Shown here one piece after another: positions 35,792-61,010 of a stretch of DNA of 64,000 bases. Below the pieces are notes generated by a model, which was not told where the DNA came from, ran no database searches, and saw nothing but the letters and a program-made list of their open reading frames with translations. The stretch comes from Unio delphinus. Taxonomy: Eukaryota; Mollusca; Bivalvia; Unionida; Unionidae. The stretch's first letter is position 1; every line of letters starts with the position of its first letter. The stretch is from assembly GCA_029339505.1 (NCBI GenBank), contig JAQISU010001239.1, forward strand, positions 4,832,501-4,896,500, read 5' to 3'. Position numbers and translations under genes: made by a program.

Positions 35792-36017
35792 AGCAGCAGA
35801 CGGTGAATCCGACAACTTTATAGAAGCGTCTATTTAGCAAACCAAGGCTTCCTCCAAAATCGTAAAAAGATTTTTACTCAATAGTAGAGAAGGCGAATCG
35901 GACAACTTTATAGAAGCGTCTATTTGGTAAACCAAGGCTTTCTCCAAAATCGAAAAAAAAGTTTCTGTTGGAGACGCAAGTCGTTGTCGCGCCCTCTCTG
36001 CTGCTATGGGGTTAAAA
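35792..36017. repeat. Left terminal inverted repeat of the outer provirus
   Basis: Starts AGCAGCAGACGGTGAATCC and ends CCCTCTCTGCTGCT at 36005. Contains two tandem ~90-bp units beginning GAATC(C/G)GACAACTTTATA (about 35805 and 35896). The inner ~180 bp match the reverse complement of 60820-61010 closely. Confidence 0.88.
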
Positions 36018-36030
36018 TCGTTTTAGGATT

Positions 36031-36653
36031 TCAACCGAATATTTTATCAAGTCCGACACGATATTTTGATCTCGGGTCATGCAAATGTATCGTTACAAAT
36101 CTAAAGAGATTATAATCCATGTCACCGCCGCACCATGTTTGCCAAATATGTCGTAGCGTATGTGTGTCAACTCCGTTGAATACAGCAAGAATATTGCAGT
36201 TATCTCTGATCACTTTTGGTATTTGAGTGTATCGTTGACATATGTCACATCGGTATTTTTATGCCTACCTCTGGAAAATATCCTAGCGGGATTCTTTTGA
36301 TTGTCTAACATGACATCATCATATACCACTAAATTGTTAATACTTCCATCAATATCATCAATGCTCGGTGCTTCCTCGATATTGGTTATAAACTCAATAA
36401 TATCCTCATCGATTTCTGATTTTGCTTTCTCGTTAAAATCCTTTAACACCTCGTAACATCGCTGATCGTCTACACTTGGGGCTATTAAATACAATTTGTC
36501 CCATTTCATCCATCTCGTTATTAAATTAAGTAGCAGTTGTGTCATGCCACTTCCAGATGGTCCGATTATAATCATGCGAATAGAATTCGGTAGCGCTGCA
36601 TGATGCTTAACTGGTTCTCGTGTTTTTGTCGCTGAAAAATCATTTACGTTCAT
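36031..36653 (-). pseudogene. A32-like packaging ATPase (outer copy), broken
   Basis: From 36653: MNVNDFSATKTREPVKHH, Walker A GPSGSGMT (Lys replaced by Met), Walker B NNLVVYDDVM. A 4-bp deletion near 36230 shifts the frame. The C-terminus is readable from 36213 to the stop at 36031 but lacks a short internal segment present in the inner copy (38921-39580). The change of the Walker A Lys alone would inactivate ATP binding. Confidence 0.85.
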
Positions 36654-36670
36654 GTTATTATAAATAAATT

Positions 36671-37193
36671 ATGGATCTATATTGTGTGAAATGTAAGAAG
36701 CGTACTAGCACAAATGACGTTACGACGATTATAACTAACAATAACAGATCAGCACTTGCTGGTTAGTGTGTAGAATGTGGTACCAAAAATTTAGATTTGT
36801 TTCCTTTGATAAAATCAAGGATTTAAAAAAAAACGAGGAGGTGATATTGCAGCCAAGTTAGTAAAACTCCCAGGAACACCATGGGCAAAATATCCGGGAG
36901 AAAAACACTTTCCAGGATATAGTTATTGTGGACCCGGGACTAGACTCGATATCAGACTCGATGATCAAAACCAACCCCGACCCGGTGAGTATCCAATAAA
37001 CGCTATTGATAAGGCGTGTCATGCTCATGATGTTGCTTATAAAAGCAGTAATCTGCAACATAGACATATCGCAGATGTAAAATTAATTCATGCGTTAAAT
37101 TCTATCACTGATAAATTCTTAAAAGAAAAATTGGCTTCATGGTGGATAAAATCGGCGATGAAAAGTAAATTGATGTTGGATGCTGGTAATTAA
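36671..37193 (+). pseudogene. DUF5679-like zinc finger fused to phospholipase A2 (outer copy), broken
   Basis: N-terminus MDLYCVKCKKRT with a stop (TAG) near 36764 before the second CVECG knuckle and a frame change near 36785. From about 36830 one frame runs through RGGDIAAKLVKLPGTPW, the calcium loop CGPGTRLDIRL and the catalytic HAHDVAYK to the stop at 37193. In this copy the A-run connecting both parts keeps the frame, showing that the two domains are one protein. See the inner copy for function. Confidence 0.8.
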
Positions 37194-37200
37194 TAACATC

Positions 37201-38144: not shown

Positions 38145-38729
38145 CACCTGTGCGCCTGTTGCACTCAAGACAAGTCAGCATCACTTTATCTCTGGTATGA
38201 CCTACACTGCTATTTTTTCTGTCTACGGTAAATTGGCAAGGGTCTTTATCCGACCAACACCAACGCATTATACAATTACAACTCGCGCAGTGATAAATTC
38301 TGTTGTTGTTTCAGAGTGATTATAAACTCGGCATCAATATCAAATTTTCTGTTATTATTTTTTTGTCTTGTTGTTTATAACCAGAGTTTGTTTCTGATTA
38401 TGTCATCGCTGATAATATCATTGATTGTTGTGTCATTATAGTCTAAAGCAACTCTTCGAAGTTGATTTATTCTTCGTACTCTGGACACCCCAAGATAAAC
38501 TAAATTCGACCACTTGATGCGATTATCTATGATCTAAACACTTTTATCGGATATAGTCAACCCCTGTATCGTCGCTGCGTATCCTAGCTTCCATGGGGAT
38601 TTATCAGCACGCAATGCATCTTCGACAACACTGAAATCAACTAACACAATATCATTTAACACGAGAATCTGTTTTTTCACTTTGTCCAGGAATATCAACT
38701 TCGATATTTTGTCTTCGTGTATCCGTAAG
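38132..38729 (-). pseudogene. PolB-helicase 3' end plus HNH (outer copy, left fragment)
   Basis: Homologous to 41098-41720 of the inner gene. It contains helicase motif V (LGYAATI ... GLTI), the end of the helicase, the A-rich run and the -1-frame HNH tail (FDIDAEFIITLKQQQ, FTVDRKN), with additional frameshifts. Cut at 38729 by the inner provirus; continued at 55401. Confidence 0.85.
38725..38729. repeat. Putative target site duplication, left
   Basis: GTAAG before the inner left end; GTAGG (55401-55405) follows the inner right end, 4 of 5 identical. Polintons normally make 6-bp duplications, so the length is uncertain. Confidence 0.45.
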
Positions 38730-38941
38730 AGCAGCAGAGAGGGTGAACAGACCACGTTTTCAAGCAAAATTAAGGCTTCCTACGAAATCTCATTTTAACC
38801 AAAAAGAATAAGTCTCCATTTTAGCGAACGGAGACTTTACAATTTTTAATCAATTTTGGTCGCAACGATGTGGTCATCACCCTCTCTGCTGCTGCAAGTT
38901 AACAAAAATAATAAATGATTTCAACCAAATATTTGATCGAG
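38730..38941. repeat. Left terminal inverted repeat of the inner provirus
   Basis: Starts AGCAGCAGAGAGGGTGAACA. The same motif recurs inverted at 38878-38893 (CACCCTCTCTGCTGCT), and the repeat continues inward (AAGTTAACAAAAATAATAAA) into the ATPase stop codon region. It matches the reverse complement of 55190-55400 almost throughout. Confidence 0.92.
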
Positions 38942-39580
38942 ACCGATACGATATCGTGTCCGAGGATCATGTAAATTTATTGTTATAAATCCGTGCGGAG
39001 TCGACTGAGCGTTACTAAAGAAATTTTTAAATTGATTGAAATCCATATCAGAGCACCATGTCTGCCAAATATTTCGTAGCGTATGTGTATCAACGCCGTT
39101 AAACACAGCAAGAATATTACAGTTCTCTCTGATCACTTTTGGAATCTGAGTGTAGCGTTGAGTGACATATATCACGTCAGTGTTTATATGCCTGCCTCTG
39201 GAAAAGATCCTAGCTGGGTTTTTTTGATTGTCTAACATCACATCGTCGTATACGACTAAATTGTTAATGCTTCCATCAAGGTCATCCACGGATGGTGCCT
39301 CGTCAATATCTGTGATAAATTCAATGGCGTTCTCACCCTTAATTTCTGAAGCGTTTTCATTAAAATCCTTTAACACTTCATAACATCGTTGATCATCTAC
39401 GCTAGGAGCAACTAAATACAACTTATCCAACTTCATCCATCTCACTATTAAATTGAGCAACAATTGCGTCTTGCCGGATCCAGATGGCCCGATTATAATT
39501 GCGCGGATAGAGTTTGGTAGCGCTGCATGATGCTTAACTGGTTCTCTTGTTTTAGTCGCTGAAAAATCAATTATATTCAT
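38921..39580 (-). CDS. A32/FtsK-HerA-like genome-packaging ATPase
   Basis: 219 residues, intact. The start at 39580 (MNIIDFSATKTREPVKHH) matches the outer copy; an upstream Met at 39592 would leave only 5 bp to the divergent gene. Walker A GPSGSGKT (about residue 35), Walker B NNLVVYDDV (about 110), and a C-terminal VTQRYTQIPKVIRENCN segment typical of A32-type ATPases. Expected role: pumping the viral genome into preformed capsids. The stop codon lies within the terminal repeat. It is divergent from the PLA2 gene across a ~17-bp AT-rich gap. Confidence 0.9.
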   Translation of the reverse strand: MNIIDFSATKTREPVKHHAALPNSIRAIIIGPSGSGKTQLLLNLIVRWMKLDKLYLVAPSVDDQRCYEVLKDFNENASEIKGENAIEFITDIDEAPSVDDLDGSINNLVVYDDVMLDNQKNPARIFSRGRHINTDVIYVTQRYTQIPKVIRENCNILAVFNGVDTHTLRNIWQTWCSDMDFNQFKNFFSNAQSTPHGFITINLHDPRTRYRIGLDQIFG

Positions 39581-39597
39581 ATCTCTATACATAAATT

Positions 39598-40135
39598 ATG
39601 GATCTATATTGTGTGAAGTGTAAAACGCGTACTAGCACAAATGATGTGGCGACGATTACAACTAAAAATAACAGATCAGCACTAACTGGTAGATGTGCAA
39701 CATGTGGTATAAAGAAAATTAGATTTGTTTCTACAAAATCAAAGATTTTACAATTCGGAGATGTTTTAAAAAAAACGAGGAGGTGATATCACAGCCAAAT
39801 TTGCAAAACTCCCTGGAACCCCATGGGAAAAGTACCCCGGATAAAAGCACCTTCCAGGATATAGCTATTGCGGCCCCGGAACACGATTAGATATCAGACT
39901 TGATGATCAAAATCTACCCCGACCCGGCGAGTATCCGATAAACGCTATTGATAAGGCGTGTCATGCTCATGATGTTGCATATAAAATCAGCAATCTGCAA
40001 AACAGGCATCTCGCAGATGTGAAATTAATTCATGAGTTAAATGCTATTCCTGATAAATCTTTGAAAGAAAAATTGGCTTCGAGGTTGGTAAAATCGGCTA
40101 TGAAAGGCAAATTGATGATGATCGCTGGTAATTAA
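39598..40135 (+). pseudogene. DUF5679-like zinc finger plus parvovirus-type phospholipase A2, broken
   Basis: The N-terminal part (39598-39786) is a CxxC zinc finger of the DUF5679 type: DLYCVKCKTRT, then GRCATCGIKKIRFV. A frame change in the A8 run near 39770 and a TAA at about 39842 separate it from the PLA2 domain: LPGTPW, calcium-binding loop YCGPGTRLD, catalytic HAHDVAY with the His-Asp dyad, ending 40135. Secreted-type PLA2 domains in virions (parvovirus VP1, adintoviruses) hydrolyse endosomal phospholipids at entry. The outer copy shows the two domains form one protein. The gene lies 4 bp before the integrase. Confidence 0.85.
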
Positions 40136-40139
40136 TAAT

Positions 40140-41105
40140 ATGGAATCTATTTATTATTCTCCGAGAGGATACTGGAAGGGTAAAGCAGCAATCAGTAAAC
40201 TCGCCAGCGCCGCAAAAGTGAAAAAGGCTACTGCGGCTAATTGGTTATCCAAACAGGCTATATGGCAAATTTATCTACCGCGTCCTAAACAAATCAATTT
40301 CTCACATTTTGATGTTACTGTACCCAATGAAGTTCATCAAGCAGATTTATTGTTTTTACCACATGACAACGGTTACTAATACGCGTTAAATGTAGTTGAC
40401 GTTGCGAGTCGATGCAAACAAGCAGAACCGCTAAAAACAAAATCATCACCTGAAGTTGCTTCTGCATTTGAAAAGATTTATCGACGAGGCCCACTACGCT
40501 GGCCAAATCTATTACAAGTCGATCCTGGCAAGGAATTTCAAGGCGATGTTTTATCAGCGATGAAAGATCACAATGTCACCATCAGATGGGTGCATACTGC
40601 ACTACATCGCGATCAGGAAATTGTTGAACGATTTAATCGGACGATTGCTGAGCGGTTATTTGGATATCAATACGCAAAAGAATTCATCCAAGAAAAGCGA
40701 TCCCGTGAATTGGTCAAAAGGTTACCATCTGTGATTACCGCACTGAATAATGAGATTACTTGAACTATCAACATGAAACCTATCAACGCGATTAAAAAGA
40801 AGTCTATACCTAAAATGGAAATTCGAAGAATTTCAGAAAAAGATTATAGTGTTTCTCAGCCAATTCTTGGTAGTAATGTCAATGTTAGGTATTTATACGA
40901 ACCAGGAGAGCTTGAAGGTGGCAGAAAAAGGGCTACTGATCCTATTTGGAGTGTTACTGCACACAACATATCTACTATAACACGATCAACTGGTAGACCT
41001 CCAATCTATAAATTGGATTTAACTGCCCCTCAGTGGGGTTTTACACGCGAACAATTACAAGTGATTCCTGACGATACTCAATTACCACCGCGGGGTCTTA
41101 ACTAG
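40140..41105 (+). pseudogene. Retrovirus-like (rve, DDE) integrase, two stops
   Basis: One frame of 321 codons interrupted by TAA 40377-40379 and TGA 40761-40763, both at positions that are sense codons in the outer copy. The N-terminal region (WLSKQAIWQIYLPRPK) precedes the core: VHQADLLFLPH (first Asp), LLQVDPGKEFQG (second Asp) and QEIVERFNR (Glu). The C-terminal domain includes VNVRYLYEPGELEGG and STGRPPIYKLD. Such integrases insert Polinton DNA by transesterification and leave short target duplications. The stop overlaps, tail to tail, the HNH extension of the polymerase. Confidence 0.9.
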
Positions 41106-41328
41106 CATCAAGGGTGCTGGCACCCCGGCGTCTGTTGCACTCAAGACAAGTCAACATTACATTGTTTCTGACATGACCGAGACTGTTATTTTTTCTGTCT
41201 ACGGTAAATTGGCGAGGATCTTTATCCGAATACTGCCAACGCATTATACAATTGCAACTCGCGCAGTGATTATTTTGTTGTTGCTTCAGCGTAATTATTA
41301 ATTCAGCATCAATATCAAATTCTCGTTG
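41098..41328 (-). CDS. HNH domain in the -1 frame of the polymerase-helicase
   Basis: Downstream of an A11 run (T11 on plus, 41329-41339) the -1 frame is open: REFDIDAELIITLKQQQ, then HCASCNCIMRWQYS, QFTVDRKNNSLGH and VMLTCLECNRRRG, ending at 41098. CxxC pairs around an xVDRxxNSxGH core form a zinc-bound HNH nuclease fold. No good start codon precedes it, so it is probably joined to the polymerase-helicase, either by a frameshift event or originally in frame. The outer provirus (about 38150-38345) shows the same -1 offset. Confidence 0.6.
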   Translation of the reverse strand, partial: QREFDIDAELIITLKQQQNNHCASCNCIMRWQYSDKDPRQFTVDRKNNSLGHVRNNVMLTCLECNRRRGASTLDAS

Positions 41329-44300
41329 TTTTTTTTTTTGTCTTGTTGTTTGTAACCGGAGAGTTTTTTATCGATAATTTTAACATCAACGATGCTAGCA
41401 TCATCCATTGTGGTGTCATCATCGCTTGACTCTGTCAGGACAATTCTTCGAAGTTGATTTTTTTTTCGTACTCTGGATACTGCAAGATAGACTAAATTCG
41501 ACCATTCGATGTGATTATCCACCATCCAAACAATTGTATCCGATATAGTCAATCCCTGTGAAGAATGTATCGTCGCTGCGTATCCTAGCGTCCATGGGGA
41601 TTTATTAGCACGCAATTCATCTTTAACGACGCTGATCTCAACCAGCACAATATCATTTAATACGAGAATTTGTTTTTCACTTTGTCCTGGAATATCATCT
41701 TCTATATTCTGTTTTCGTGTATACGAAGGCCTATAACACAACGGTACTGGAAGTGTTGCAAATTTTTCTTTATGCAATTCAAATAACTTCATCTGAAGTG
41801 TGTCTCTGACTATTTTTCTACTTGCAATTATCAAATCGTTTGGTTTCCACTCTTCATAGAAATCATTCATTGGAGTTTCTGAAATTATTTCACGCGCTAT
41901 TTCACATTGGATTTTATCCGGCTGTAATCTAATTAGCGCTTTGAACTCGCGTAATTGTTCATCAAGTGATCTATAATCAGTGGTAATTTCTTCATAATAG
42001 TCTACAAAACCCTTTAGCCATTCATGTGGGGATGCACCGACAAATGGTGGTGGTTGGCCGTGATCACCGCACATGTCGACTTTTGTATTTTTCAATAACA
42101 ACCACTCGAGAAATGTTTGTAATATTTTCAACGATACTGTGCATATTTCATCCCAAATTATGATTTCAGGAATGAATTTATCACCCATTCGATCAGGAGT
42201 CCATTCATCGCCTTTCCATCGAAAGAAACTATGATAAGTACAGGCATTTACCCCTCGTTGTTTCATCTCTCTGGTGAGTCTGTGAGTTGGTGTTAGGACA
42301 ATCATGTTTGATTTTGAAAAGCGGAATAATTCAAATGCACGAGTTGTCTTTCCTGACCCACCACAACCGTTTAAAAAAACTGTCTTGTATCTACATATTG
42401 GATCAGATATCGGTGGTGCATTAGAAAATTCGGATTGAATCTCATCACACCTTAAGTACTTTTCATCCATGGTAACATCTGTCGATTCACAATACTCATG
42501 TAGCGTCTCCTTTTGAAATCTCCAACATCCCCAACTTGCCTCCGGATCTGTGAATTTAGCTACATTTGATTTGTATTTCTCGTGGATATACATATAATCA
42601 GTGGCTACTCTAACTGCGGTATTAGGAAATCTATTTATCATCGAAAATAAATTGATAGAAGCATAAGCTAGCATATAACTTCTCAAATGCGTATATTGTT
42701 TAATATATCCATCACAATAGGTAACAATTGTACCTAATCGTCTTCCATCGGATAGGAAAGCGTCTTTACGATTTACAAGTTTTCCCTGTTTTGTTAAATC
42801 CGTTACAATAAAATCGTATTCAGCGATGTCTATGATCAACCACGAGGAATATTTTGCATTGTCGTATCTTCCACCCTGGGTAAATTTACCGATTATACTT
42901 CGTCCAAAATCTTTTGCTTGTTCTTTTTTAATTTCAAATAACTTCTTAGACCAATTCATGATTTGTTCTTCACTGAAATTCGAATATCCATCTAGAAACT
43001 GTTTTCGCTGTTCGCTAATTATACGATCTAGATCGGGTTGTGGTAGCCAAACTTCTATCTGAGCTCGATAGCATATAATAGCTTCGGAAACAATCAACGA
43101 TATTAGCATACCACAATCAATCATATATCGTAGTAACACTATTGGCATCCAGGCCTTTTCAGATATATGTCTACCAAGCCAAACATAACTACACGGATGT
43201 AACCCTGTAGCGAGTTCAAATGATATCACAAGAGCGAATCCGGTCAAATCAAAATCAGGTAATGGCCCATTAATCGCAACACGAGTCATTTCATGTGTGG
43301 GGTGTCCAAATCGTTTAAAATAGTTACTACATTCTCCATACCCGAGGAAACTTCCAGGATAACACGCGGATATATCAATTGGAATCATACCGCCACGATG
43401 GTATTTTGTATTCCACAGTCCTCCATGACTAAATTCGACGCAACTCAATTTAACGTCTTCGAGAAAATCACTTTGTGTTGGACGCCATGAGTTTTTTTCT
43501 CTTGCGAAGTGAGCTACCACTGATGGAATAGTAAAACTATCCGTTAATAGTTTTTCATGGGAACTCTCCGGTGAAAAATCACTAGCGATTTTTCTCATTC
43601 TGTTATCTAATTCTTCAACGCGATATAATTCACCATTTGGTCTTACAAATTGATCAAATCCTATTTCGGGATCTTCAACACTTCTAAGTAACCACACTGA
43701 CACAGGATCATCCTTACACAGCGTGTGAATAGCATCGAATAATTTCTCATTATAAAAAACATCCTCGACGAATTCCTTAGGGATATATCTCACGGTTCTA
43801 TCTCGTGGAAATATTGTTACTGCAGCCATCCACGCGTGTTTGTTATGATCAATAATTTTAATTGGAGCTCCTCGCGATTGATATTTCGGTTCGTATAATA
43901 CTTCTCCGGTTATTGCCGTTACTGATATTGGGAATTTTAATGATGCTTCTAATTTAGCTATATCAGAAATCTTTGCACCGTGCTGTTTCACTGTCAGTTC
44001 CCATTCGGTTATTTTCCTACGTCGCAGATCAGTTAGTTTATTTCCTCGGGATGCATTTGTGAAGTGTTCCATTACCCGTGTTGCTACACAATTCAGTGAA
44101 CTAGAATATTTCATAGGAGCTAGTTTTGCAATATCGGGTTTATCATTTAACGGATATATCCCATAAACAATTGCTGTTACGGGATAAGATCTTTCGTAGT
44201 ATGGTTTGTCAATTCCAGTTAGAATTCCCGGTTTGGAATCTCTACTTACAATGACAGTTTTTTTATCCTTAAGGATTGGTTCAAATTTATCCCTGATAAT

Positions 44301-44885
44301 CCATTTGCCTTCGACTTCGATAATGAATTTTATTCTGAAAAAATACTTCTGTTGGGAATTGCTTTGTTGAAAATCTTTGACTTTCCATGAAAATCCTTTG
44401 GATTTTACACTATTGAATTTCCAGCCCCTTGGCGGGCCAAGGTGTGAAATTATCTCAGCTGCTCTTTCATCGTTCATAGTAGCATCGATGTTGGGTACAT
44501 TGACATCTTCATCAATAATTCGAAATGTCGACCAACAGTATGCTGCACCGTCTCGGTAGAATTCATTAAAACACTCCCTGATTTTACCCAGTATAGTTCT
44601 ATCACCGATTAGACGTTTTGGTGTATCAGAGACTCTATCGAGATTGAATTTAGTATTTTTCCAGGGCTTAATTTTCGATAATCTGTTGAACTCCTTATCG
44701 AGATTGAATTTAGTATTTTTCCAGGGCTTAATTTTCGATAATCTGTTGAACTCCTTATCGAGATTGAATTTAGCATTTTTCCAGGGCTTAATTTTCGATA
44801 ATCTTTGGAATTCTTTCATGGTATAATCAATGAATTTAGTATTTTTCCAGGGCTTAATTTTCGATAATCTCTTGAACTCCTCCAT
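41298..44885 (-). CDS. Family B DNA polymerase fused to SF1 (Pif1/RecD-like) helicase
   Basis: 1195 residues from the ATG at 44885 (upstream in-frame Met at 44936 rejected: provirus A has the same start with conserved spacer). Residues 1-75 hold four basic EF-RLSKIKPWKN repeats. The middle region contains FPISVTAITGEVLYEPKY and IIDHNKHAW. PolB palm: motif A DISACYPGS (about 504), motif B KDFGRSIIGKFTQGG (about 657), motif C ATDYMYI (about 758; the outer copy reads ATDS). Helicase: Walker A GCGGSGKTT (about 838), Walker B IIIWDEIC (about 905), GDHGQPPP, GYAATIHSSQGLTI and VSRVRKKNQL. Expected role: viral genome replication with built-in unwinding. The fusion is unusual for Polinton-type polymerases. 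Confidence 0.88.
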   Translation of the reverse strand: MEEFKRLSKIKPWKNTKFIDYTMKEFQRLSKIKPWKNAKFNLDKEFNRLSKIKPWKNTKFNLDKEFNRLSKIKPWKNTKFNLDRVSDTPKRLIGDRTILGKIRECFNEFYRDGAAYCWSTFRIIDEDVNVPNIDATMNDERAAEIISHLGPPRGWKFNSVKSKGFSWKVKDFQQSNSQQKYFFRIKFIIEVEGKWIIRDKFEPILKDKKTVIVSRDSKPGILTGIDKPYYERSYPVTAIVYGIYPLNDKPDIAKLAPMKYSSSLNCVATRVMEHFTNASRGNKLTDLRRRKITEWELTVKQHGAKISDIAKLEASLKFPISVTAITGEVLYEPKYQSRGAPIKIIDHNKHAWMAAVTIFPRDRTVRYIPKEFVEDVFYNEKLFDAIHTLCKDDPVSVWLLRSVEDPEIGFDQFVRPNGELYRVEELDNRMRKIASDFSPESSHEKLLTDSFTIPSVVAHFAREKNSWRPTQSDFLEDVKLSCVEFSHGGLWNTKYHRGGMIPIDISACYPGSFLGYGECSNYFKRFGHPTHEMTRVAINGPLPDFDLTGFALVISFELATGLHPCSYVWLGRHISEKAWMPIVLLRYMIDCGMLISLIVSEAIICYRAQIEVWLPQPDLDRIISEQRKQFLDGYSNFSEEQIMNWSKKLFEIKKEQAKDFGRSIIGKFTQGGRYDNAKYSSWLIIDIAEYDFIVTDLTKQGKLVNRKDAFLSDGRRLGTIVTYCDGYIKQYTHLRSYMLAYASINLFSMINRFPNTAVRVATDYMYIHEKYKSNVAKFTDPEASWGCWRFQKETLHEYCESTDVTMDEKYLRCDEIQSEFSNAPPISDPICRYKTVFLNGCGGSGKTTRAFELFRFSKSNMIVLTPTHRLTREMKQRGVNACTYHSFFRWKGDEWTPDRMGDKFIPEIIIWDEICTVSLKILQTFLEWLLLKNTKVDMCGDHGQPPPFVGASPHEWLKGFVDYYEEITTDYRSLDEQLREFKALIRLQPDKIQCEIAREIISETPMNDFYEEWKPNDLIIASRKIVRDTLQMKLFELHKEKFATLPVPLCYRPSYTRKQNIEDDIPGQSEKQILVLNDIVLVEISVVKDELRANKSPWTLGYAATIHSSQGLTISDTIVWMVDNHIEWSNLVYLAVSRVRKKNQLRRIVLTESSDDDTTMDDASIVDVKIIDKKLSGYKQQDKKKNNENLILMLN
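44641..44880 (-). repeat. Four ~60-bp coding repeats at the polymerase N-terminus
   Basis: 44641-44700 and 44701-44760 are identical over 60 bp; 44761-44820 differs at a few positions; 44821-44880 is a fourth, more diverged unit. Each encodes EF-RLSKIKPWKN-KFNLDK. Provirus A has a related but different repeat array at 1-230. Confidence 0.95.
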
Positions 44886-44927
44886 GTTATAATTAAAACA
44901 AGTATTTAAATAGAAAAATATAGTATA
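44886..44927. promoter_or_regulatory. Divergent promoter spacer, PolB / zinc-ribbon
   Basis: TATAATTAAAACAAG plus ATTTAAAT as in provirus A (268-309); TATAATG marks the rightward start. Confidence 0.5.
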
Positions 44928-45242
44928 ATGAATCACTGCAAGTGGCTAATTATTGGATCTACAACCCCGTGTAACAAATCATGCAGAAGCGAATTCTTTG
45001 GGTATCATTTACAAAGCGTTCGCAACGGTTCTTTCGGACCTCTCTCATGCCTCCAATGTGGGGCTGGGGTAAGGGGAAAATCGCAGTTGTGTCTTGCTTG
45101 TGGGGGTAAACGATACAGGGAACTAAAACGCTATTATGACAAACGAAAAAAAAATGCAGTCATTGACCCCAACGATGACAAAATCATCAAAACCCCTCAA
45201 GATTATATCAAGAGGTTTAAAATTAAAGCAGATATAAATTAG
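44928..45242 (+). CDS. Small Cys-rich (zinc-ribbon-like) protein, inner copy
   Basis: 104 residues, intact. Cys positions correspond to those at 310-693 (TPCNKSC, LQCGAG, QLCLACGGK) except that FCGYH became FFGYH, so one non-paired Cys is dispensable. The basic GGKRYRELKRYYDKRKK segment is kept; the tail is shorter. Separated by 21 bp from the HNH gene. Confidence 0.6.
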   Translation: MNHCKWLIIGSTTPCNKSCRSEFFGYHLQSVRNGSFGPLSCLQCGAGVRGKSQLCLACGGKRYRELKRYYDKRKKNAVIDPNDDKIIKTPQDYIKRFKIKADIN

Positions 45243-45263
45243 ACAAATAGTATTATTATACAA

Positions 45264-46920: not shown

Positions 46921-46926
46921 AAAAAT

Positions 46927-47287: not shown

Positions 47288-47358
47288 CCACGTGAGCGAT
47301 AGTCCTTCAGTAATTTTCAGTAAAAAATAATTATTTTTTTTAGCGTTTTTTGTAACAC

Positions 47359-49269: not shown

Positions 49270-49304
49270 AGTTTCACAATTGAAAACACTAGTATTTTAA
49301 TAAA
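49270..49304 (+). promoter_or_regulatory. Promoter-like module before the capsid gene
   Basis: TTTCACAATTGAAAACACTA, then GTATTTTAATAAA and ATG. The ATTGAAAA box and near-palindrome AAAACACTAGTATTTT (49284-49299) follow the pattern of other virion genes. Confidence 0.5.
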
Positions 49305-50735: not shown

Positions 50736-50795
50736 ATGAAACTTGAAGAGTTTCCAATTAGATCAATTGAAAGCATAAATGTGTTTTACAATAAA

Positions 50796-51260: not shown

Positions 51261-51280
51261 TTGAAAGCCCAATTCTCCCT

Positions 51281-51722
51281 ATGTCCAATTTCGATTTAAT
51301 CGATGCTGCTAAAAAACTAGCGATAAAAAACTTTAGAGGGGTTTTTATGAGAGATCAATTACCGAGAAAACCAAACAGCGTTGAAACCGGTATCATCAAT
51401 CTTGATAACAGTAACGGATCTCGGGAAACTCACTGGGTTGCATACACGATTGATCCACGTGGAATTGTCTATTTTGATTCATAATGGGTTAGCTCCACCA
51501 AGTGAGTTTATGCGGTATATAAATTCTTCGATGAAACTCAAAGAGTTTCCGATTTTTTATTCAACGCTGCCAACACAACAATTAAATGATCCACCGATAT
51601 GCGGCCGTGAAGTATTAAATGTCCTCACGGAGATTTCATCGTCACAGAAACCACCTCATCTGGTTGTAAATAAATACACGAGTGGGAAATTACAAAGTAA
51701 TTTTAAAGAATCAATAAATTAA
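51281..51722 (+). pseudogene. Adenain-like protease, inner copy, frameshifted
   Basis: MSNFDLIDAAKKLAIKNFRG, catalytic His in THWVAYTIDP and Asp in YFDS. The frame changes near 51483 (one extra base) and continues with GLAPPSEFMRY to QQLNDPPICGREVLNVL (catalytic Cys), stop 51720-51722. The break point differs from that in provirus A. Confidence 0.82.
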
Positions 51723-51744
51723 AAATACTAGAGTCTTTATAATA

Positions 51745-53331
51745 ATGATTGATATTTGGGGACAATCTCTGTCAATGTCGGAACCCACCGCAGAAACATC
51801 TGCGGGTTCTATCGAAGATGTAAAAAAAATAATTGAAGATGAAATCGCTGAGACGTTAAATTTAGCAAGTGTTGACCCGAACGAAATAGTTGTATTTCAA
51901 GATAGCCAGGGAAAATTGAAAAGCAGTAATATATCCGTGAATGACATTTTGATACGGCAGCGCAGCACCGCTGAAAACTCTATTGCGTTGTATTCCAGAG
52001 ACGGACAACTTAAACCAGGCGAACTTGTGTCTACAATCACCGACGCGATTGACGCCCACGACAGCATGATTGCCACCCGCAGCTGTGAGCTGGATGATCT
52101 TATACGAGGTTATAACAATTTTCGCAAAAATGTCGTACATAAATTCTTTGGAACCCCGCTTGTGGTTGGCATGACTCTCGCTGAAATTAAAAACTTTCTA
52201 TCTTTATTCTTTTTTAACAAGGACGCGGGAAGGATGATGAATGAAGATGAAATCAAGGCAAATTATCTCGATATTTACACGGATATTTCTAAACTAATAG
52301 AAAATCTTGAAAAGGTACAAAAACCCACTAACGACGTCATTGTTAAGTTTTTTGGAATCCCGCTTGTGGCAGGCATGACTCTCGCTGAAATTAGCGAGTT
52401 TATTGGCAAGCATACTCACAATGCCTACATTGCTAATAGTTTCTTTGGTGTCCCAGCTACATCTACAATGACTCTCAAAGATATTAATATGTTTATGGTG
52501 AGACAAACAACACTTAATACCATCGTGGATAAATTTTTAGGGAGAACACCTATGTCTGAAACCACATCGTTGACAGGCCCGACCCTCGCTGAAATTAAAA
52601 GCGCGTTTGACGAACAAAAATCCACCAGTAAAATGGTTAAAAATTTCTTTAGAGGACCTGAAGGTTACGATACCACTACGACATATTTTGACCTCGCTAG
52701 TGATTATAAACTCCGAGTAGAAATGGAATTTAGCTCCTTTTTTAATTCATTTTTTAAACGCCGCAATAAAACGTTGATGAAATATCCTGAAATCGATAAA
52801 ACCTATTCCGACGTCATTGACGATATTCTTAAACTAAGGGGAGAATTTGAGCGGGACCAAAAACTAGTCAATGATATTATTATTAAGTTTCTTGGAATTC
52901 CACACAACGTGGGTATGACTCTCGTTGAAATTATCGCGGCTATCAATAAGGTAAAAATTCCACATAGTGTAAGCGCCGTTAATAACATCGTGTACATGGT
53001 TGATAGTGGAACTTTTGATTGGAACCGAGGAAAAGAAAATTATCTTCGTGCTGGCCACATACATACTGGTGTACCAGGTTGCTACCGACTTACTATAATA
53101 CATCACCGTAAATTTGATTTGGAATTCAGCAACACAGGTATCAGAGGTGTTAACACATTGATGTATATACTAGAGAAAGTACCACCACCTCCACCCTCTA
53201 TACCAATCCCGCTTACGATTACTATAAACAATTCCGACGAGTCTGTGATTAGGGAGTCACTACCATGGATAATAGAATTTGTATCCGGTGTCCCCTCATC
53301 CGATCCTAAAACCCTTTCAATAATAGGATAA
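51745..53331 (+). CDS. Fibre-like / spike protein with six FFG-P-MTL repeats
   Basis: 528 residues, intact. Conserved base (MIDIWGQSL; DEIAETLNLASVDPNEIVVF) to about residue 125. Repeat units at about residues 132, 201, 233, 262, 299 and 380 (HKFFGTPLVVGMTLAEI, VKFFGIPLVAGMTLAEI, NSFFGVPATSTMTLKDI, DKFLGRTPMSETTSL, KNFFRGPEG, IKFLGIPHNVGMTLVEI). C-terminal head from about 403 (NNIVYMVDSGTFDW) with a polyproline stretch (VPPPPPSIP). Almost twice as long as the 295-residue copy in provirus A, mainly through repeats; the head is also strongly diverged. Receptor-binding function is inferred from architecture. Confidence 0.52.
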   Translation: MIDIWGQSLSMSEPTAETSAGSIEDVKKIIEDEIAETLNLASVDPNEIVVFQDSQGKLKSSNISVNDILIRQRSTAENSIALYSRDGQLKPGELVSTITDAIDAHDSMIATRSCELDDLIRGYNNFRKNVVHKFFGTPLVVGMTLAEIKNFLSLFFFNKDAGRMMNEDEIKANYLDIYTDISKLIENLEKVQKPTNDVIVKFFGIPLVAGMTLAEISEFIGKHTHNAYIANSFFGVPATSTMTLKDINMFMVRQTTLNTIVDKFLGRTPMSETTSLTGPTLAEIKSAFDEQKSTSKMVKNFFRGPEGYDTTTTYFDLASDYKLRVEMEFSSFFNSFFKRRNKTLMKYPEIDKTYSDVIDDILKLRGEFERDQKLVNDIIIKFLGIPHNVGMTLVEIIAAINKVKIPHSVSAVNNIVYMVDSGTFDWNRGKENYLRAGHIHTGVPGCYRLTIIHHRKFDLEFSNTGIRGVNTLMYILEKVPPPPPSIPIPLTITINNSDESVIRESLPWIIEFVSGVPSSDPKTLSIIG

Positions 53332-53360
53332 TTGAAAACACTATCAGGTTTAAAATAACA

Positions 53361-53945
53361 ATGTCAATGATTCCATCATCAATGACAGCGTCAATGACGC
53401 CGTCATCGCAATATCGATTCGACACCGTGAAAGAGTTTTCCGCAAATTTGAAATCACTTTCTGAGCATTATCGTGAAAAAATAAAGAAATACTGCAGAAG
53501 AATTACCGTCATCGATGTCTCTGTGTATTCGGTGTCCGGTGTGATGGCCAGCGCCGGGGTTATTTTGTCGACGGTGACCATGATGGCTCCGATTGCAGTT
53601 CCAATTGCTATCTCCGCGGCAACAACAATTGCTGCAGTCGCCACTGCGATAACTAAAAAATTATCATCGTGTTCTCAGAAAAAACTCAGTGATTATACAG
53701 CTCGGAACAGGGTGGTATTTGACTCGTATTCGAAATTATCCGAGTCGATCTTGCTGTCGATAGATAATTCGTTCATATCCGATGTTGAATTTTCCACGAT
53801 GACCCAGTTGTATAACTCCGCGATGTTGAAATTGGAAATTGAAGACAGCGTTAACAATAATGTCACTCGAACTGCTTCAACGAATCGCGGAGAATACCAC
53901 TCCGATACGAACAAGCATGATATCAATAACATCAACAAACCCTGA
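53361..53945 (+). CDS. Membrane protein, inner copy
   Basis: 194 residues, intact. Charged N-terminal helix (EFSANLKSLSEHYREKIK), two hydrophobic spans (VMASAGVILSTVTMMAPI; AVPIAISAATTIAAVATAI), then a helical tail. Its last ~86 bp overlap the start of the penton-like gene (53860) in another frame. Confidence 0.62.
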   Translation: MSMIPSSMTASMTPSSQYRFDTVKEFSANLKSLSEHYREKIKKYCRRITVIDVSVYSVSGVMASAGVILSTVTMMAPIAVPIAISAATTIAAVATAITKKLSSCSQKKLSDYTARNRVVFDSYSKLSESILLSIDNSFISDVEFSTMTQLYNSAMLKLEIEDSVNNNVTRTASTNRGEYHSDTNKHDINNINKP

Positions 53946-55186
53946 ATTTAGTGTGAACTTCCCTTCTCCGATTCCAGTGCGTGAGATCGCGCTGGCAAAA
54001 TTACGAGTATATCATAGCTGGCCTAATATCAGATCGGTTGCATTTGGCGGTCAGCAACCCAATAACGCACTGGTGTTCTCGTATAAGAATAAACCCGATG
54101 GTACTCCAGAGTGGGAAACTGTTACGTTACCAACTGGGTCGTACCAAATTAAGCAAATCAATGCTGAAATTCAGCGTAGAATAAAATCAATCACTGGAAA
54201 AGAATCAAAAATAGCTATTAATCTTCATCAACCGACGCACTCGTCGTCAATCGAAATAAGCACAGAGGGATACATTGCAGATATCTATAACAGCTCGTTA
54301 AGAACAGTGTTAGGATGGCCTGAAAAACCACCCGAAAAATCCACCGCCGACTTAACCACGGACGTACAATCATATCATGAAATCAATCCCAGTTATCGAG
54401 ATAATTTATCTGATATAAGAAAAGGAAAAATCGCCGATAGATTTATATTTACCAACAAAGACACATTGCAATGGGATTTTATCATTAAAAGAACAGCCGA
54501 CTCATCTGTTACTATTTCATTTACGCTAACTGAGGTCCGTGGTTATTTTAATGAAATTAAACAATTATATGAAACACAACTAGAACAACTACGGAAAACA
54601 AAATCGCGAAAACACGTTGAAATAATAAATCAACTTATATCTGAAATGGAATATGTATATGAACTAATTATTCAAACAATAATTAATGACAACAGCGACA
54701 GTAAACAACGATTCCTAACCGATTACAATATCACAGAAGACAATCTGCGTAATTTCAAGTTTCCCAAATACAACGCTGATGAACTAGCAAGAATTGTTAG
54801 AACCGATCAAGGCGCTACAAAAACCAGATTCAACTGTCCTCCTCAGGTATAATAATGATCCAGATGGTGGCGGTAGGCATATTGCCCCGCATAATGTAAA
54901 TATTTCAACGGTGATTGCGCTCAATTTAGTATATGATGCAATTTAAGGAAGCTATCAAATTAATCTAGAGCAATCAAATCAAGCACAGCAGGGATATATT
55001 CTTTATTCGTTTGCACCAACAGCTCCTCCAGGATTCCTAATTATTGAAAACCCAATTAATCCTGTCTACATGCGATGCCATAATAATTCGTTAACGAGAA
55101 TTAATTTCCGACTCACCGACCAGTCAAATAATTTAATTTATCTACAAGATGAGGTGTTAGCGATTAGTTTGTTTGTAAAGTCCTAA
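53860..55186 (+). pseudogene. Penton-like protein, inner copy, broken
   Basis: The start at 53860 (MSLELLQRIAENT) aligns with 7553; an earlier Met at 53839 is in frame. The N-terminal domain (MISITSTNPEFSVNFPSP) is well kept and the middle is diverged. A frame break near 54840 leads to the C-terminal domain (NNDPDGGGRHIAPHNVNIS ... APTAPPGFLIIENPINPVYM), with a TAA near 54944; final stop 55184-55186. Confidence 0.68.
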
Positions 55187-55189
55187 AGA

Positions 55190-55400
55190 CTCGATAAAAA
55201 ATTTGGTTGAAATCATTTATTATTTTTGTTAACTTGCAGCAGCAGAGAGGGTGATGACCACATCGTTGCGACCAAATTGATTAAAAATCGTAAAGTCTCC
55301 GTTTGCTAAAATGGAGACTTATTTTTTTTGGTTAAAATGAGATTTTGTAGGAAGCCTTATTTTTGCTTGAAAACGTGGTCTGTTCACCCTCTCTGTTGCT
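55190..55400. repeat. Right terminal inverted repeat of the inner provirus
   Basis: Begins 4 bp after the penton stop. The bracket motif AGCAGCAGAGAGGGTG starts at 55238 and the inverted end CACCCTCTCTGTTGCT ends at 55400. Near-perfect inverted copy of 38730-38941. Confidence 0.92.
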
Positions 55401-57964
55401 GTAGGCATATAACACAGCGGCACTGGAAGTGTTGCAAATTTTTCTTTGTGTGTATTAAATAACTTCATCTGATGTGTGTCTCTGACTATCTTTCTACTTG
55501 CCACTATCAAATCGTTTGGTCTCCACGCTTCCCAAAAATCATTTAATGGGGTTTCCGAAATTATTTCACGTGCTATTTCACACTGGATTCTATCCGGTTA
55601 TAATCTGATTAGTTTCTTGAACTCGCGTAATTGTTTATCAAGTGCTCTATGATCAGTACTAATTTCTTTATAATAGTCTACAAAATTCTTTAGCCAATTA
55701 TGTGGAGACAAACCGACAAATGGTGGTGGTTGACCATAATCGCCACACATTATCACTTTTGTATGCGCTAGCAATAACCAATCGAGAAACCTATGTAATA
55801 CATCCAACGACACTTTATATATCTCATCCCAAATAATGATTTCATGAATATATTTCTCACCCATTCGATCAGGAGTTCATTTGTCACCTTTCCATCGATA
55901 AAAAAAACTGATAAGTGCAAGCATTAACTCATGGCTGTTTCATCTCTCTTGCTAGTTTATGTGCTGGTGTTAGCACAATCATGTTTGATTTCCCTTGAAA
56001 TAATTCGATCGCACGAGTCGTCTTCCCTGACCCACCACAGCCGTTTAAGTAACTGGTTTTATATCTACATATTGGATCGGAACACGACGGTGAATTAGAT
56101 AGTTCTGATATCTGATTATTTTTAAAGTAATTGTTTTCAATCGTAACATCTGCTGATTTGGAATAATCACGCAGTATTTCCTTTTTAATTCTCCATGATC
56201 CCCAACTCTCGTCGGAATTAGTGAATTCAGCCACTGATTCTTTATGTTTACGTCTATATAAAATGAATCAGTGGCGACTCTAACTGCGGATTCAGGAAAT
56301 CTGTTTATCATCGAAAGCAAATTAATAGAAGCATAAGCCAGCATAGACGACCTTAAGTACGTATATTGAGGATTTTCTCCATCTGTGTAAGTAACAATTG
56401 TACCTAATTTGGTTCCATCGGATAAGAAAGCGTCTTTACAATCGACGTATATACCCCTAGATGTTACATCTGTGATTATAAAATCGTATTCAGCATCATC
56501 TATAATCAACCGCGAGGAATATCGTTTGTGGTCGTATTTTCCACCTTGTGTGAACTTACCAATTATTCTTCTACCGAAATCTTTTGCGTGTTTATTTATA
56601 ACTTCAAAGATTTCTTTGGACCATTTCATGATATATTCTTCGTCGAGATCGGGGAATTGTTTTTTGTTTTAGGTGATTATACTATGTAGACTATCGGGTT
56701 GTGGTAGCCAGACTTCAGTTTGTTTTCGATATGATATAATTGCTTAACTGACAATCAGCAATATCAGCATTTTAGAATCAATCATATACCATAATAACAC
56801 TATTGGCATTCAATGTTTTTCAGAGATGTGTCTACCAAACCAAAAATAACAGCAGCGATGAAGTTTTTTAGCCAATTCAAATGATATCACACGAGCGAAT
56901 CCGGTGAGATCAAAATCGGGCAGTAGTCCATTAATTGCAACACGGGTCATTTCGCGTGTGAGATGTCCAAATCTTTTGAAGTACTCGGAACACTCTCCAT
57001 ACACAAGAAAACTCCCTGGATAACACGCAATCATATCAACCGAAATAATATACTTAGGATCGTATTTTGTATTCCATACTCCACTATGGCCGTATTCTAC
57101 GCAGCTTGATTCGATATCTGAGAGAAATTCTGCGCGTGTTAGTTTCCACAGATTTCTCTTTCTCGTTAAATGAGCTGCAACTGACGGAATTGTAAAACAG
57201 TTTGTTAATAATTGTTCGTCGTAATCCGTTGAAAAATCACCAGCTAGTTTTTTCATCTCGTTGTGGAGGGCTTCAGTACGGTATAATTCGCCATTGGGTC
57301 TTACAAATTGATCGAATTTACCCTCTTCGTCTTCAAAACTGTGAAGTAACCACACTGACACAGGATAGTTTTTACTTAAGTCGTAAAAAAAAATCAAATA
57401 AATTTCCTGTGTAATATTTTATGGTTCTATTCCGCAGAAATATTGTTACCGCAGGTGTCCAAGCGTGTTTATTATGGTCAATAATTTTGATTGGAGCTCC
57501 ATTTGATTTATATTTGATTAGTGTAATACCTCTCCTGTTATCGTCAGAACGGTTATTGGGAATCTTAATGATGTTTCTAATTTGGCTTTATCTTGAATTG
57601 TTGCTCCGCTCTTCTTCACTGTTAATCCTATTCACTTATTTTTTGTGTGTCTTAGATCCGTCAATTTGTTTCCACGCCACGCATTTGTAAAATGTTTTAT
57701 TATTCGTTCTGCTACACAATTTATCCTCCCTGACAATTTCATGGGTTTTAATTTTTCAATACTCGGTCTATCATTTATCGGATAGATTCCATAAACAACT
57801 GCTGTTAGAGGATAGGACCTCTCGTAATATGATTTGTCAATCCCAGTCAGAATTCCTGGTTTGGAATCCTGACTCACAGTGACGGTTATTTTATTTTTCA
57901 GGATGGGTTCAAATTTGTCGCGTATAATCCAATTCCCCGTTTCTGAACGGATAATGAATTTCAC
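55401..57964 (-). pseudogene. PolB-helicase (outer copy, right fragment), heavily broken
   Basis: Read downward from 57964: FIIRSETGNWIIRDKFEPIL (N-terminal ~200 residues missing), FDQFVRPNGELYRTE, motif A SVDMIACYPGS (about 57030), motif B KDFGRRIIGKFTQGG, motif C ATDSFYID (canonical Asp-Ser), Walker A GCGGSGKTT, IIIWDEI, GDYGQPPP, and LPVPLCYMP at 55410, where it is cut by the inner provirus. At least six frameshifts or stops. It joins directly to a fibre-like gene at 57965 through a deletion. Confidence 0.88.
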
Positions 57965-57965
57965 T

Positions 57966-58887
57966 CTATTTCAAGATCGTCAGGGTAAATTGAAAACTAG
58001 TAATGTTTCCCTTGATGATATTTTAGTTAAACGACGCGACGCAGTAGAAGATACAATCGCGTTGTTTTCCAAGGAGGGTAAACTGAAACCAGGTGTACTT
58101 GTTTCGACGCTCACAGATAAATTAGCAGCACTCGGTGATAATTATTCAACAACGATAGAATTATTTAAAAAAAACTACGTGATGATTATAACATTCACGT
58201 AAATGCGTAAGTACAAAAAGCTATTAACACTTTTCAGGTCCCCTTAAACGATTTATATGGAGATCCACCGGTTACCACACCACAACTCACGGAGATAAAA
58301 TCAGCCTTTGATAATTTGATAAAATTGCGATCAGATTATGATACTCATGTATCTCAGTTTACTACGTTACGTAAAATCTTTAACAGGACCGATGACGTCA
58401 TTGATAAATTTTTTTGGTAAAAAAAAATCGAAACCCGATAATGTTAAAATAGATCTCGCTGATATTATCACAAAACTCGATGAAATAACAGCGATTAGGA
58501 GTTATTCGCGAAGATATTAAAACGACCAACGATGTCATCAGGGATGATCTACCGAGGATGATAGAAAAACTTGATAAAAAAAATCTCTCACGAACAAAAA
58601 AATATCATAAATAACTTGTACGCGATCCAACACGGATCATTTACGTGGACACCACAAAATAACATTAAATAATAACGCGACCGTCAAAGGTATTTATCGA
58701 CTAACACTAGTGTCACCGACTCAGTTTAATATTTCATCAACGAGTTCATCTGGGGTCAACGATATGATATCAACGATCATCGACAAGGGAACAATTCACA
58801 ATAGCATCCACTTATAATAATTTGGCTAGGGTTTCAATAACATGGCATGTGGAATTCGTAGCGGATTTAAGTAAACAACTGAATTGA
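57966..58887 (+). pseudogene. Fibre-like gene (outer copy), 5'-truncated and broken
   Basis: Begins in the conserved base (LFQDRQGKLKTSNVSLDDIL), the first ~48 residues being lost in the deletion. Frames break repeatedly after 58200. The C-terminal head (IQHGSFTWTPQN, FNISSTSSSGVN, VEFVADLSK) is closer to provirus A than to the inner copy; stop about 58885. Confidence 0.7.
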
Positions 58888-58948
58888 ATTCGCTAGCGAA
58901 TTTAACACTAGCGAATTTAACGCCAGCAAATCTATTATAATAAATAAA

Positions 58949-59430
58949 ATGTCATCATTTGCAACGTCACAACTATATCGCTATGATCAGGTCAGAGAAT
59001 TTCAAACTAAACTCAAACCACTCACTGAAGAGTACCAAACAAAGATAAAAAAATACCAACAAAGAATTACCGCAGTTGATGCTACCGTGTACTCGATATC
59101 AGGTGTAATCACCTTAGCTGGTATTATACTCTCATCAGTGACAATGATTGCCCCGATAGCTGTTCCAATTTGTATATCAGCGGTGACAACAATCGCTGGA
59201 ATAATTTCGATTATAACAAAAAAAAAATATCATCATGCAGCCAGCGCAAACTACAAGACTACGTAATTAAATTCCATGTTGTATCAACCTCATACTCCCA
59301 ATTATCCTCGATGATATAGTCGTCACTCGATGACACATTAATATCCGATAGTGAGTTTTCAGCGATGGTACGTATTTATGATTCCGCGATGTCAAAATTA
59401 GAAAAACAACAGGAGTATAATAACAATGGC
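58949..59430 (+). pseudogene. Membrane protein (outer copy), broken
   Basis: MSSFATSQLYRYDQVREFQTK, two hydrophobic spans (LAGIILSSVTMIAPIAVPI; SAVTTIAGIISII). The frame is lost in an A-run near 59220. The remainder is recognisable to about 59430, where it overlaps the next gene. Confidence 0.68.
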
Positions 59431-60811
59431 AAGATCGCAAGAACTACTTCAATGAATAGCGGAAAACACAACTACGGTGAAAACCAGCATGATCTCAATA
59501 ACTTCAAAGAATCCTGAATTCAATGTGAATTTCCCTACTGCAATTCCAGTTAAAGAGATAGCACTAGCAAACTTACGAGTGTATCACAGTTAGCCAAATA
59601 TTAGATCAAAATCATTCGGTGGTCAACAACCGAATAATTCACTGGTGTTTGCGAGCAAGAATAAACAAGACGGGACTCCTCACTGGAACGTTGTTTCACT
59701 ACCATCTGGGTCCTACCAAATCGAACAAATCAATAACGAATTACAACGTAGAATAAAATTCATTACTGGAAAAGAATCGAAAATCGCTATAACGGTTCAC
59801 GAGCCGACGTTATCATCTGCCATTGTGATAAACTCGCCCGGGTATGTCGTAGACATCTATCAGAGTTGTATAAGAACCGTGTTAGGATGGCTTGAAAATC
59901 CACCTCGACAAGAAACCATTAATATACCCGAACCACAAAAATCTGATTATATTTCAACTGAGGAGGAATATCACGATTATAGAACAGTGGGACCTATAAG
60001 AGAAATAAATGAAATAAAATATTTGTTACTACTAGATGATATTTTTTCAGTATATTTTAAAACGAAAAATTACGATGGTATGGAATATCATACGATATAT
60101 TAACCAAATGTTACCAGAAAATTCGCATGGATGACTGACAGGTTGAAAATTATTAGAAATCTACTTGTGGGTGAAATTAGTAAAATCCAACCGAGATGAT
60201 GTCATCAAATACACTGAAGTGTGTAATAAAATTATCGCCGACATGGATGAATTCAGTTTGAAACTTCTTCAATATATTAATAATATTGCTAATGAACCAG
60301 AAAGGAGTTTGCAGCAAGGCATACTATACGCGTAGAAGATATCCTCGATTTTAAATTACCAGGATATAATGCACCAGAGTTGAAAGCATTTCTTAATGAT
60401 ACCATCGGTGATGGTTTCAAAACTATTCACGACGCATGGAAAAAAATATTACAACAAACAACAATCCTCAAAAATAATAATGACCCAGACGGTGGTGGGC
60501 GACGTATCGCTAATCAAAACGTCAATATATCCTCGGTGATTGCATTGAATTTAGTATGTGATGTTATCGAAGGAAGTTACCAAATAAATCTCGAATGATC
60601 AAATCAAGCTCAGCAGGGATATATTTTATATTCAATTGCACGAACAGCTCCACCCGGATTTTTAATAATTGAGGATCCAACTAGTCCAGTGTATATGCGA
60701 TGTCATAATGATTCATTAGGGAAAATTAAATTTAAACTCAATGACCAGTCCAATAATCTGATTGATTTACGAGGTGAGGTTTTACAAATTAGTCTGTTTG
60801 TGAAATCGTAA
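59426..60811 (+). pseudogene. Penton-like gene (outer copy), broken
   Basis: Start MARSQELLQ at 59426 with a stop soon after (TGA near 59453) and another near 59594. The N-terminal domain (NSLVFASKNKQDGTPHWNVV) and C-terminal domain (NNDPDGGGRRIANQNVNISS; PPGFLIIEDPTSPVYM) are clear; further stops near 60103 and 60598. Ends 60811. Confidence 0.75.
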
Positions 60812-60819
60812 AAAAAAGA

Positions 60820-61010
60820 CTTTAATCCCATAGCAGCAGAGAGGGCTCGACAACGACTTGCGTCTCCAAAAGAAACTTTTTTTTTCGATTTTGGAGGAAG
60901 CCTTGTTTTACCAAATAGACGCTTCTATAAAGTTGTCCGATTCGCCTTCTCTACTATGGAGTAAAATCTTTTTACGATTTTTGGAGGAAGCCTTGGTTTG
61001 CTAAATAGAC
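60820..61010. repeat. Right terminal inverted repeat of the outer provirus
   Basis: AGCAGCAGAGAGGG starts at 60832; the following ~180 bp match the reverse complement of 35834-36005. Similarity stops at 61010, so the outermost ~40 bp present at the left end (from 35792) are missing here. Confidence 0.85.

What the first reader, a model, noticed from the sequence alone, without database searches (positions are those of the whole stretch)
35792..61010. A complete virus inserted inside the polymerase gene of a related provirus
The minus-strand PolB-helicase gene is interrupted at 38729 and resumes with the next homologous bases at 55401. Between lies a 16.7-kb element with near-identical inverted terminal repeats and its own full gene set. 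GTAAG/GTAGG flank it. This is a superintegration of one Polinton/adintovirus-like virus into another, in the gene for replication. It dates the outer element as older and may reflect targeting, chance, or a selfish way to disable a rival.
Basis: partly seen in the sequence, partly recalled or inferred. Interest (0 to 1): 0.9.

Follow-up and report, generated by a model that had tools for sequence, protein, structure and literature searches.

The report
Virus-like element nested inside its relative
In what is likely a freshwater-mussel genome, a 16.7-kb virus-like element sits inside the replication gene of a related element, with a short, almost perfectly duplicated target site on its two sides; because relatives of these elements cover roughly a fifth of the DNA sampled at random from the same genome, it likely landed there by chance.

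Summary
Element 38730-55400, with 164-bp inverted ends, splits the minus-strand polymerase-helicase gene of a related element (35792-61010): outer-left homology ends at inner 41725 and outer-right homology starts at inner 41727. GTAAG/GTAGG is a 5-bp target-site duplication with one mismatch; three other copies carry the site uninterrupted, and on each the two outer flanks overlap by exactly five bases. Five of 14 young copies read at both ends show exact 5-bp duplications.

The inner element is full-length but damaged. Terminal-repeat divergence does not make the outer visibly older (K2P 0.030 outer, 0.038 inner), though nesting means it came first. Targeting is not supported: 3 of 21 right flanks of young copies lie in family DNA, against 147 of 600 random windows, and at other sites.

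Nesting is the expected by-product of an abundant family: its copies cover 22% of 200 kb of random stretches (bootstrap 95% 10-36%). That abundance of a capsid-encoding, recently active family in a likely mussel genome is the point worth following. Contig joins at the youngest copies look unreliable.

The parts
35792..61010 (.). outer element, interrupted by the inner one; lacks the capsid block and the tip of its right end
35792..36005 (+). outer left terminal inverted repeat
36034..36668 (-). outer A32-like ATPase gene, in two frames
   Evidence: tblastn; PF04665 for 36210-36668
36813..37193 (+). outer PLA2-like ORF
   Evidence: PF08398
37249..38141 (+). outer integrase-like gene (PF00665 below curated cut-off), last part in another frame
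38332..38729 (-). outer polymerase-helicase gene, 3' part (helicase end), up to the break
38725..38729 (.). target duplication, left copy GTAAG
38730..55400 (.). inner element, full-length, damaged
38730..38893 (+). inner left terminal inverted repeat
38921..39595 (-). inner A32-like ATPase ORF
   Evidence: PF04665
39845..40135 (+). inner PLA2-like ORF
   Evidence: PF08398
40122..41105 (+). inner integrase-like frame, broken by stops; identified by its match to the outer integrase-like ORF, no Pfam match of its own pieces tested
41298..44945 (-). inner polymerase-helicase ORF: SF1 helicase domain by Pfam; polymerase part by motifs recalled, not by any library
41098..41367 (-). tail of the inner polymerase-helicase gene in another frame; looks HNH-like by eye, no Pfam HNH match of its own
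45243..45755 (+). HNH/NUMOD1 endonuclease-like ORF
   Evidence: PF13392, PF07453
47625..48602 (+). inner ORF of unknown role
49305..50735 (+). double-jelly-roll major capsid protein gene; open from 49485, a stop lies just upstream in the frame that the young copies keep open
   Evidence: (PF21738)
51185..51701 (+). ORF after the capsid gene in two frames (protease-like by eye only)
53830..54852 (+). inner ORF of unknown role, also in outer and third copies
55237..55400 (-). inner right terminal inverted repeat
55401..55405 (.). target duplication, right copy GTAGG
55401..57967 (-). outer polymerase-helicase gene, the other part, in several frames
57967..60812 (+). outer right part after a deletion of about 7.5 kb relative to the inner element
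60832..61010 (-). outer right terminal inverted repeat, tip missing

Best explanation
A 16.7-kb virus-like element (38730-55400) lies inside the polymerase-helicase gene of a related element, flanked by a 5-bp target-site duplication with one mismatch, and it was likely put there by its family's retrovirus-type integrase at a site likely hit by chance. Shown: the clean break and resumption of homology, the inverted ends, the duplication, the uninterrupted site in three other copies, the family's share of random stretches, and 5-bp duplications at young copies. Inferred: that the integrase-like gene product made the insertion, that no targeting is involved, and that the family spreads, or spread until recently, as a capsid-forming virus. 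If relatives fill about a fifth of the genome, an integrase without target choice puts a comparable share of new copies into older ones; both copies then decay.
For: Colinear halves meeting at inner 41725/41727. Inverted ends. Five-base overlap of the two outer flanks on each of three uninterrupted copies. Exact 5-bp duplications at 5 of 14 young copies, none matching at six. Family on 22.3% of 200 kb in 20 random stretches, bootstrap 95% 9.7-36%. Right flanks of young copies in family DNA: 3 of 21, against 147 of 600 random 200-base windows, Fisher p=0.44; their places differ from each other and from this one. Near-identical dispersed copies: L017/L018 99.9% over 4.2 kb.
Against: No reads span the junctions here. 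The integrase-like ORF is below Pfam's cut-off (24.5 bits, cut-off 32.6), and the inner one is broken. 9 of 14 young copies read at both ends have flanks that do not match each other, so contig joins in this genome cannot be trusted blindly. The random stretches come from 18 contigs that the capsid search named, which could raise the family share. Twenty-one flanks cannot exclude a mild preference (95% 3-36%).
Confidence: 0.85

Rival explanations
1. Targeted superintegration: the element prefers relatives' DNA, or their replication gene, and so disables a rival.
For: The insertion does cut the replication gene, and three more young copies lie in family DNA.
Against: 3 of 21 flanks against 147 of 600 random windows; their places correspond to inner coordinates 9815, 1778 and about 1173, not to this site.
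Confidence: 0.06
2. Assembly artefact: two elements wrongly joined by the assembler.
For: Such joins seem to occur in this genome: in 7 of the 9 mismatched young copies the left 5-mer equals another mismatched copy's right 5-mer (random mean 0.09, maximum 4 in 5000 draws).
Against: Here the two flanks fit each other: colinear gene halves, a 5-bp duplication confirmed on three uninterrupted copies, pairing outer ends, and both halves equally related to the same paralogues. The inner copy is not one of the near-identical ones.
Confidence: 0.06
3. Recombination or gene conversion between related copies, not insertion.
For: Related copies are dense, and exchanged flanks between young copies could also be true exchange.
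Against: The inner copy starts and ends exactly at its terminal repeats with a short duplication at a point of the target that is not homologous to those repeats.
Confidence: 0.03

Closest known systems
Polintons/Mavericks, including adintoviruses, of animals
   Same: Inverted ends, double-jelly-roll capsid gene, A32-like ATPase and integrase-like gene, spread through a genome.
   Different: Polymerase part fused to an SF1 helicase; polymerase identity not confirmed by any library; duplication of 5 bp, where 6 bp is typical for such integrases (PMC12220804, passages).
Tlr1 elements of Tetrahymena and related polinton-like viruses
   Same: Truncated polymerase followed by a C-terminal SF1 helicase and a nuclease (PMC12721341, passages); here the helicase follows the polymerase-like part and an HNH-like tail follows it.
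   Different: Tlr1 carries a GIY-YIG nuclease; the tail here is HNH-like by eye and only weakly by Pfam (4 of 13 relatives, best E 0.08). No tree was made. Host is likely an animal.
Mavericks of Trichomonas vaginalis
   Same: Very large genome share: about a third, 27 capsid genes per Mb (PMC10120064, passages); here 25-30 per Mb with limits of about 8-65.
   Different: A 160-Mb protist genome against a 2.5-Gb likely mussel genome; the present share rests on 200 kb.
Mobile elements nested in polinton-like viruses of cryptophytes and relatives
   Same: A mobile element interrupts a gene of an integrated virus (PMC12220804 and PMC12747079, passages).
   Different: There the inserts are retrotransposons; here insert and target are of one family.

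Membership tests
Polinton/Maverick | terminal inverted repeats of about 100 bp or more | tested here: met
   164-bp inner repeats; outer repeats
Polinton/Maverick | double-jelly-roll major capsid protein | tested here: met
   PF21738, 71.7 bits, cut-off 27
Polinton/Maverick | A32/FtsK-type packaging ATPase | tested here: met
   PF04665, 43.1 bits, cut-off 22.8
Polinton/Maverick | retrovirus-type integrase | tested here: inconclusive
   PF00665 E 3.3e-5, 24.5 bits, below cut-off 32.6, in the outer ORF; no match for the inner pieces tested
Polinton/Maverick | protein-primed family B polymerase | tested here: inconclusive
   PolB-like motifs recognised from memory in an 11-protein alignment; no library match; structure model too poor
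Polinton/Maverick | 6-bp target-site duplication | tested here: not met
   5 bp here and at 5 of 14 young copies, none at six; PLVs are described with 5-6 bp (PMC12220804, passages)
Polinton/Maverick | adenain-type protease | tested here: inconclusive
   no Pfam match for ORFs 50978-51484 and 51351-51722
Tlr1-type element | polymerase part with C-terminal SF1 helicase | tested here: inconclusive
   helicase met (PF13245, 40.5 bits, cut-off 25.1); polymerase part by motifs only
Tlr1-type element | GIY-YIG nuclease domain on the fusion | tested here: not met
   no GIY-YIG match; weak HNH in 4 of 13 relatives
integrase-made nested insertion | intact ends, short target duplication, colinear target | tested here: met

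The most novel reading that the evidence does not exclude
A capsid-encoding, Tlr1-like integrating virus family has invaded a mussel germ line until it fills about a fifth of a 2.5-Gb genome, is still moving, and now inserts into itself so often that self-nesting is a normal way in which its copies die.
Probability: 0.55. Interest if true: 0.75.

Novelty: new member of a known kind. Interest (0 to 1): 0.48.

Why it matters
The nest itself is what any abundant integrating element produces. It matters as a clean, ordered pair of insertions and because it led to the family's abundance. Mavericks stand at 1.69% and 1.93% in the two columns of a hard-clam paper's repeat table (PMC8905726, passage) and at about a third of Trichomonas (PMC10120064, passages). 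A capsid-bearing family on about 22% of random DNA in an animal would make 'transposon or virus?' testable on very many copies: its capsid gene shows purifying selection (median dN/dS 0.22 over 51 pairs). It also warns that long-read contigs may be joined wrongly across near-identical 17-kb copies.

Tried and rejected
Targeting was tested with flanks of young copies against random windows and not supported. An age gap from terminal-repeat divergence was not found (6 of 163 sites inner, 5 of 172 outer). The viral-contig collection gave no relative for the capsid protein or for the polymerase-helicase alignment, the phage collection none for the capsid protein, and solved structures none for it. 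The polymerase part got no family match, and its structure model was too poor to search with (mean pLDDT 48.6). A second possible nest in L032 (two family fragments in opposite orientation) stayed ambiguous. Of the 9 paper searches, the listings showed no title or abstract that describes a polinton inside a polinton or such a share in a mussel. I saw passages of 11 papers and whole texts of none, so this is no proof of absence.
Full report
What is there. Two related elements lie one inside the other: the outer from 35792 to 61010, the inner from 38730 to 55400. Outer left (36102-38725) matches inner 39028-41725 at 80.0%, and outer right (55403-57967) matches inner 41727-44336 at 74.5%, in the same order and strand, with no gap between. 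The break lies in a minus-strand gene whose inner copy spans about 41098-44945. The inner ends are 164-bp inverted repeats that begin AGCAGCAGAGAGGGTGA. The flanks are GTAAG and GTAGG.

Is it a real insertion? Three of the random stretches carry the same place without an insert (L024, L032, L033). Each outer flank was aligned to them separately, and in all three the last five bases of the left flank and the first five of the right fall on the same five positions; L032 reads GTAGG there. So five bases were duplicated and one copy has since changed by one base. Both outer halves match the same paralogues at similar identity, and the two outer ends pair with each other, so the halves come from one element. 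I take the nest as real; no reads were available.

State of the two elements. The inner is full-length but damaged: stops in the integrase-like frame, a stop just upstream of the open capsid frame, frame breaks in two neighbouring ORFs as compared with young copy L017, and the tail of the polymerase-helicase in another frame. The outer has lost about 7.5 kb beyond 57967, including the capsid gene, and the tip of its right end. Whether that loss came before the insertion is unknown. Nesting means that the outer was there first; terminal-repeat divergence shows no difference (6 of 163 sites inner, 5 of 172 outer, K2P 0.038 and 0.030, Fisher p=0.77), so the two insertions may be close in time.

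Genes. Capsid protein with a double jelly roll (PF21738), A32-like ATPase (PF04665), SF1 helicase (PF13245) and an HNH/NUMOD1 ORF; a PLA2-like ORF (PF08398) and, in the outer copy, an integrase-like ORF (PF00665, below cut-off). The inner integrase-like frame is named by its match to the outer one. The part before the helicase has motifs that I recognise from memory as PolB-like, conserved over 11 aligned proteins, but no library or structure search named it a polymerase, and the model failed. I call the gene polymerase-helicase with that reserve. A polymerase part with a C-terminal SF1 helicase is described for Tlr1 (PMC12721341, passages).

Host. The genome that holds the window has 2,505,324,503 bases in 1246 contigs. 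Among the 67 capsid relatives, the one hit named as a mussel's is from Sinanodonta woodiana (67% over 71% of the query). Unio delphinus is published with 2,505,989,517 bases and 1254 contigs (PMC10235117, passages). The host is thus likely a unionid mussel, perhaps that species. That paper masks 21.92% of the genome as DNA elements; its main text holds neither 'maverick' nor 'polinton'.

How common is the family? Twenty random 10-kb stretches, drawn from 18 contigs that the capsid search had named, are covered to 22.3% by blastn matches of at least 50 bases to the window's copies; 9 of 20 stretches have such a match. Bootstrap 95%: 9.7-36%. The choice of contigs could raise the figure. Capsid-protein matches occur in 6 of 20 stretches, two of them cut by the stretch end, i.e. 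25-30 per Mb with limits of about 8-65. In the capsid search of the genome 100 of 46,376 first-look candidates were scored; 91 of these 100, the window's own included, have no stop in the matched stretch. They are the best-scoring ones, so this is not a census. L017 and L018, on different contigs, are 99.9% identical over 4.2 kb. Capsid dN/dS has a median of 0.22 over 51 pairs with dS above 0.05, from 12 of 19 fetched copies; the 7 with stops were dropped.

Is the place chosen? Right ends of 21 young copies were read. Three right flanks (L045, L050, L061) lie in family DNA, against 147 of 600 random 200-base windows from the 20 stretches treated the same way (Fisher p=0.44). The places correspond to inner coordinates 9815, 1778 and about 1173, none of them the site seen here. 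L045 and L050 rest on the right side only: their left flanks do not fit, and for L050 the left end may be misplaced among repeat-like stretches. L061's right flank pairs with L058's left flank; extrapolated over 31 unaligned bases, the two overlap by five positions in the PLA2-like region. Nesting thus occurs at about the rate expected for a family of this size, and no site repeats. The sample is small: 3 of 21 has limits of 3-36%.

Target duplication. Fifteen left ends were sought and fourteen found. Five copies have exact 5-bp duplications (GCATT, AAGCA, TGACA, CCTTT, CATGC); none matches at six. Nine do not match themselves; in seven of the nine the left 5-mer equals another mismatched copy's right 5-mer (random mean 0.09, maximum 4 in 5000 draws). 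L053 and L056 are reciprocal; L046, L060 and L048 form a ring; L060 and L061 share 113 of 113 bases of left flank. Five of the seven lie within 100 kb of a contig end, L046 and L058 more than 2 Mb from one. Wrong contig joins across near-identical copies are the likely cause; true exchange is not excluded. The window's inner copy is not of that kind, since its flanks fit each other.

Mechanism and verdict. Likely a linear copy with inverted ends was inserted by the retrovirus-type integrase, with a five-base stagger, into a relative that happened to occupy the target. This is inferred from ends and duplication; no activity was measured. Retrotransposons nested in polinton-like viruses are in print (PMC12220804 and PMC12747079, passages). 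The nest is ordinary; the abundance of the family is the point worth following.

Noticed in passing
L021-L040 (random stretches of the same genome): The family covers 22.3% of 200 kb of random stretches, with capsid-protein matches in 6 of 20.
   Followed up: partly
L046, L048, L053, L056, L058, L060, L061 with left ends L063-L073: Flanks of near-identical young copies do not match at one copy but match across copies, which suggests wrong contig joins or exchange between copies.
   Followed up: partly
window 1-9235: A third related copy, cut by the window start, with a capsid frame 78% identical to the inner one.
   Followed up: partly
window 18076-21290: Remnant of a fourth copy on the minus strand: capsid fragments and terminal-repeat-like ends.
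   Followed up: no
window 44636-44881: Four copies of a 60-bp repeat in the 5' part of the inner polymerase-helicase ORF, giving a repeated peptide.
   Followed up: no
window 41098-41367 and relatives P0068, P0070, P0077: The polymerase-helicase ends in a cysteine/histidine-rich tail that looks HNH-like; weak Pfam support (4 of 13 relatives, best E 0.08).
   Followed up: partly
window 57967: The outer element jumps from the polymerase-helicase gene to a region 7.5 kb further on in the inner one; whether other copies share this deletion is unknown.
   Followed up: no
window 29080-30363: Two ORFs with weak matches to hAT dimerisation and DUF4371 models, likely a hAT-like transposon.
   Followed up: no
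P0075: A relative of the polymerase-helicase is filed under a Candidatus Thiodiazotropha MAG, a clam symbiont by recall; possibly host DNA in that bin.
   Followed up: no
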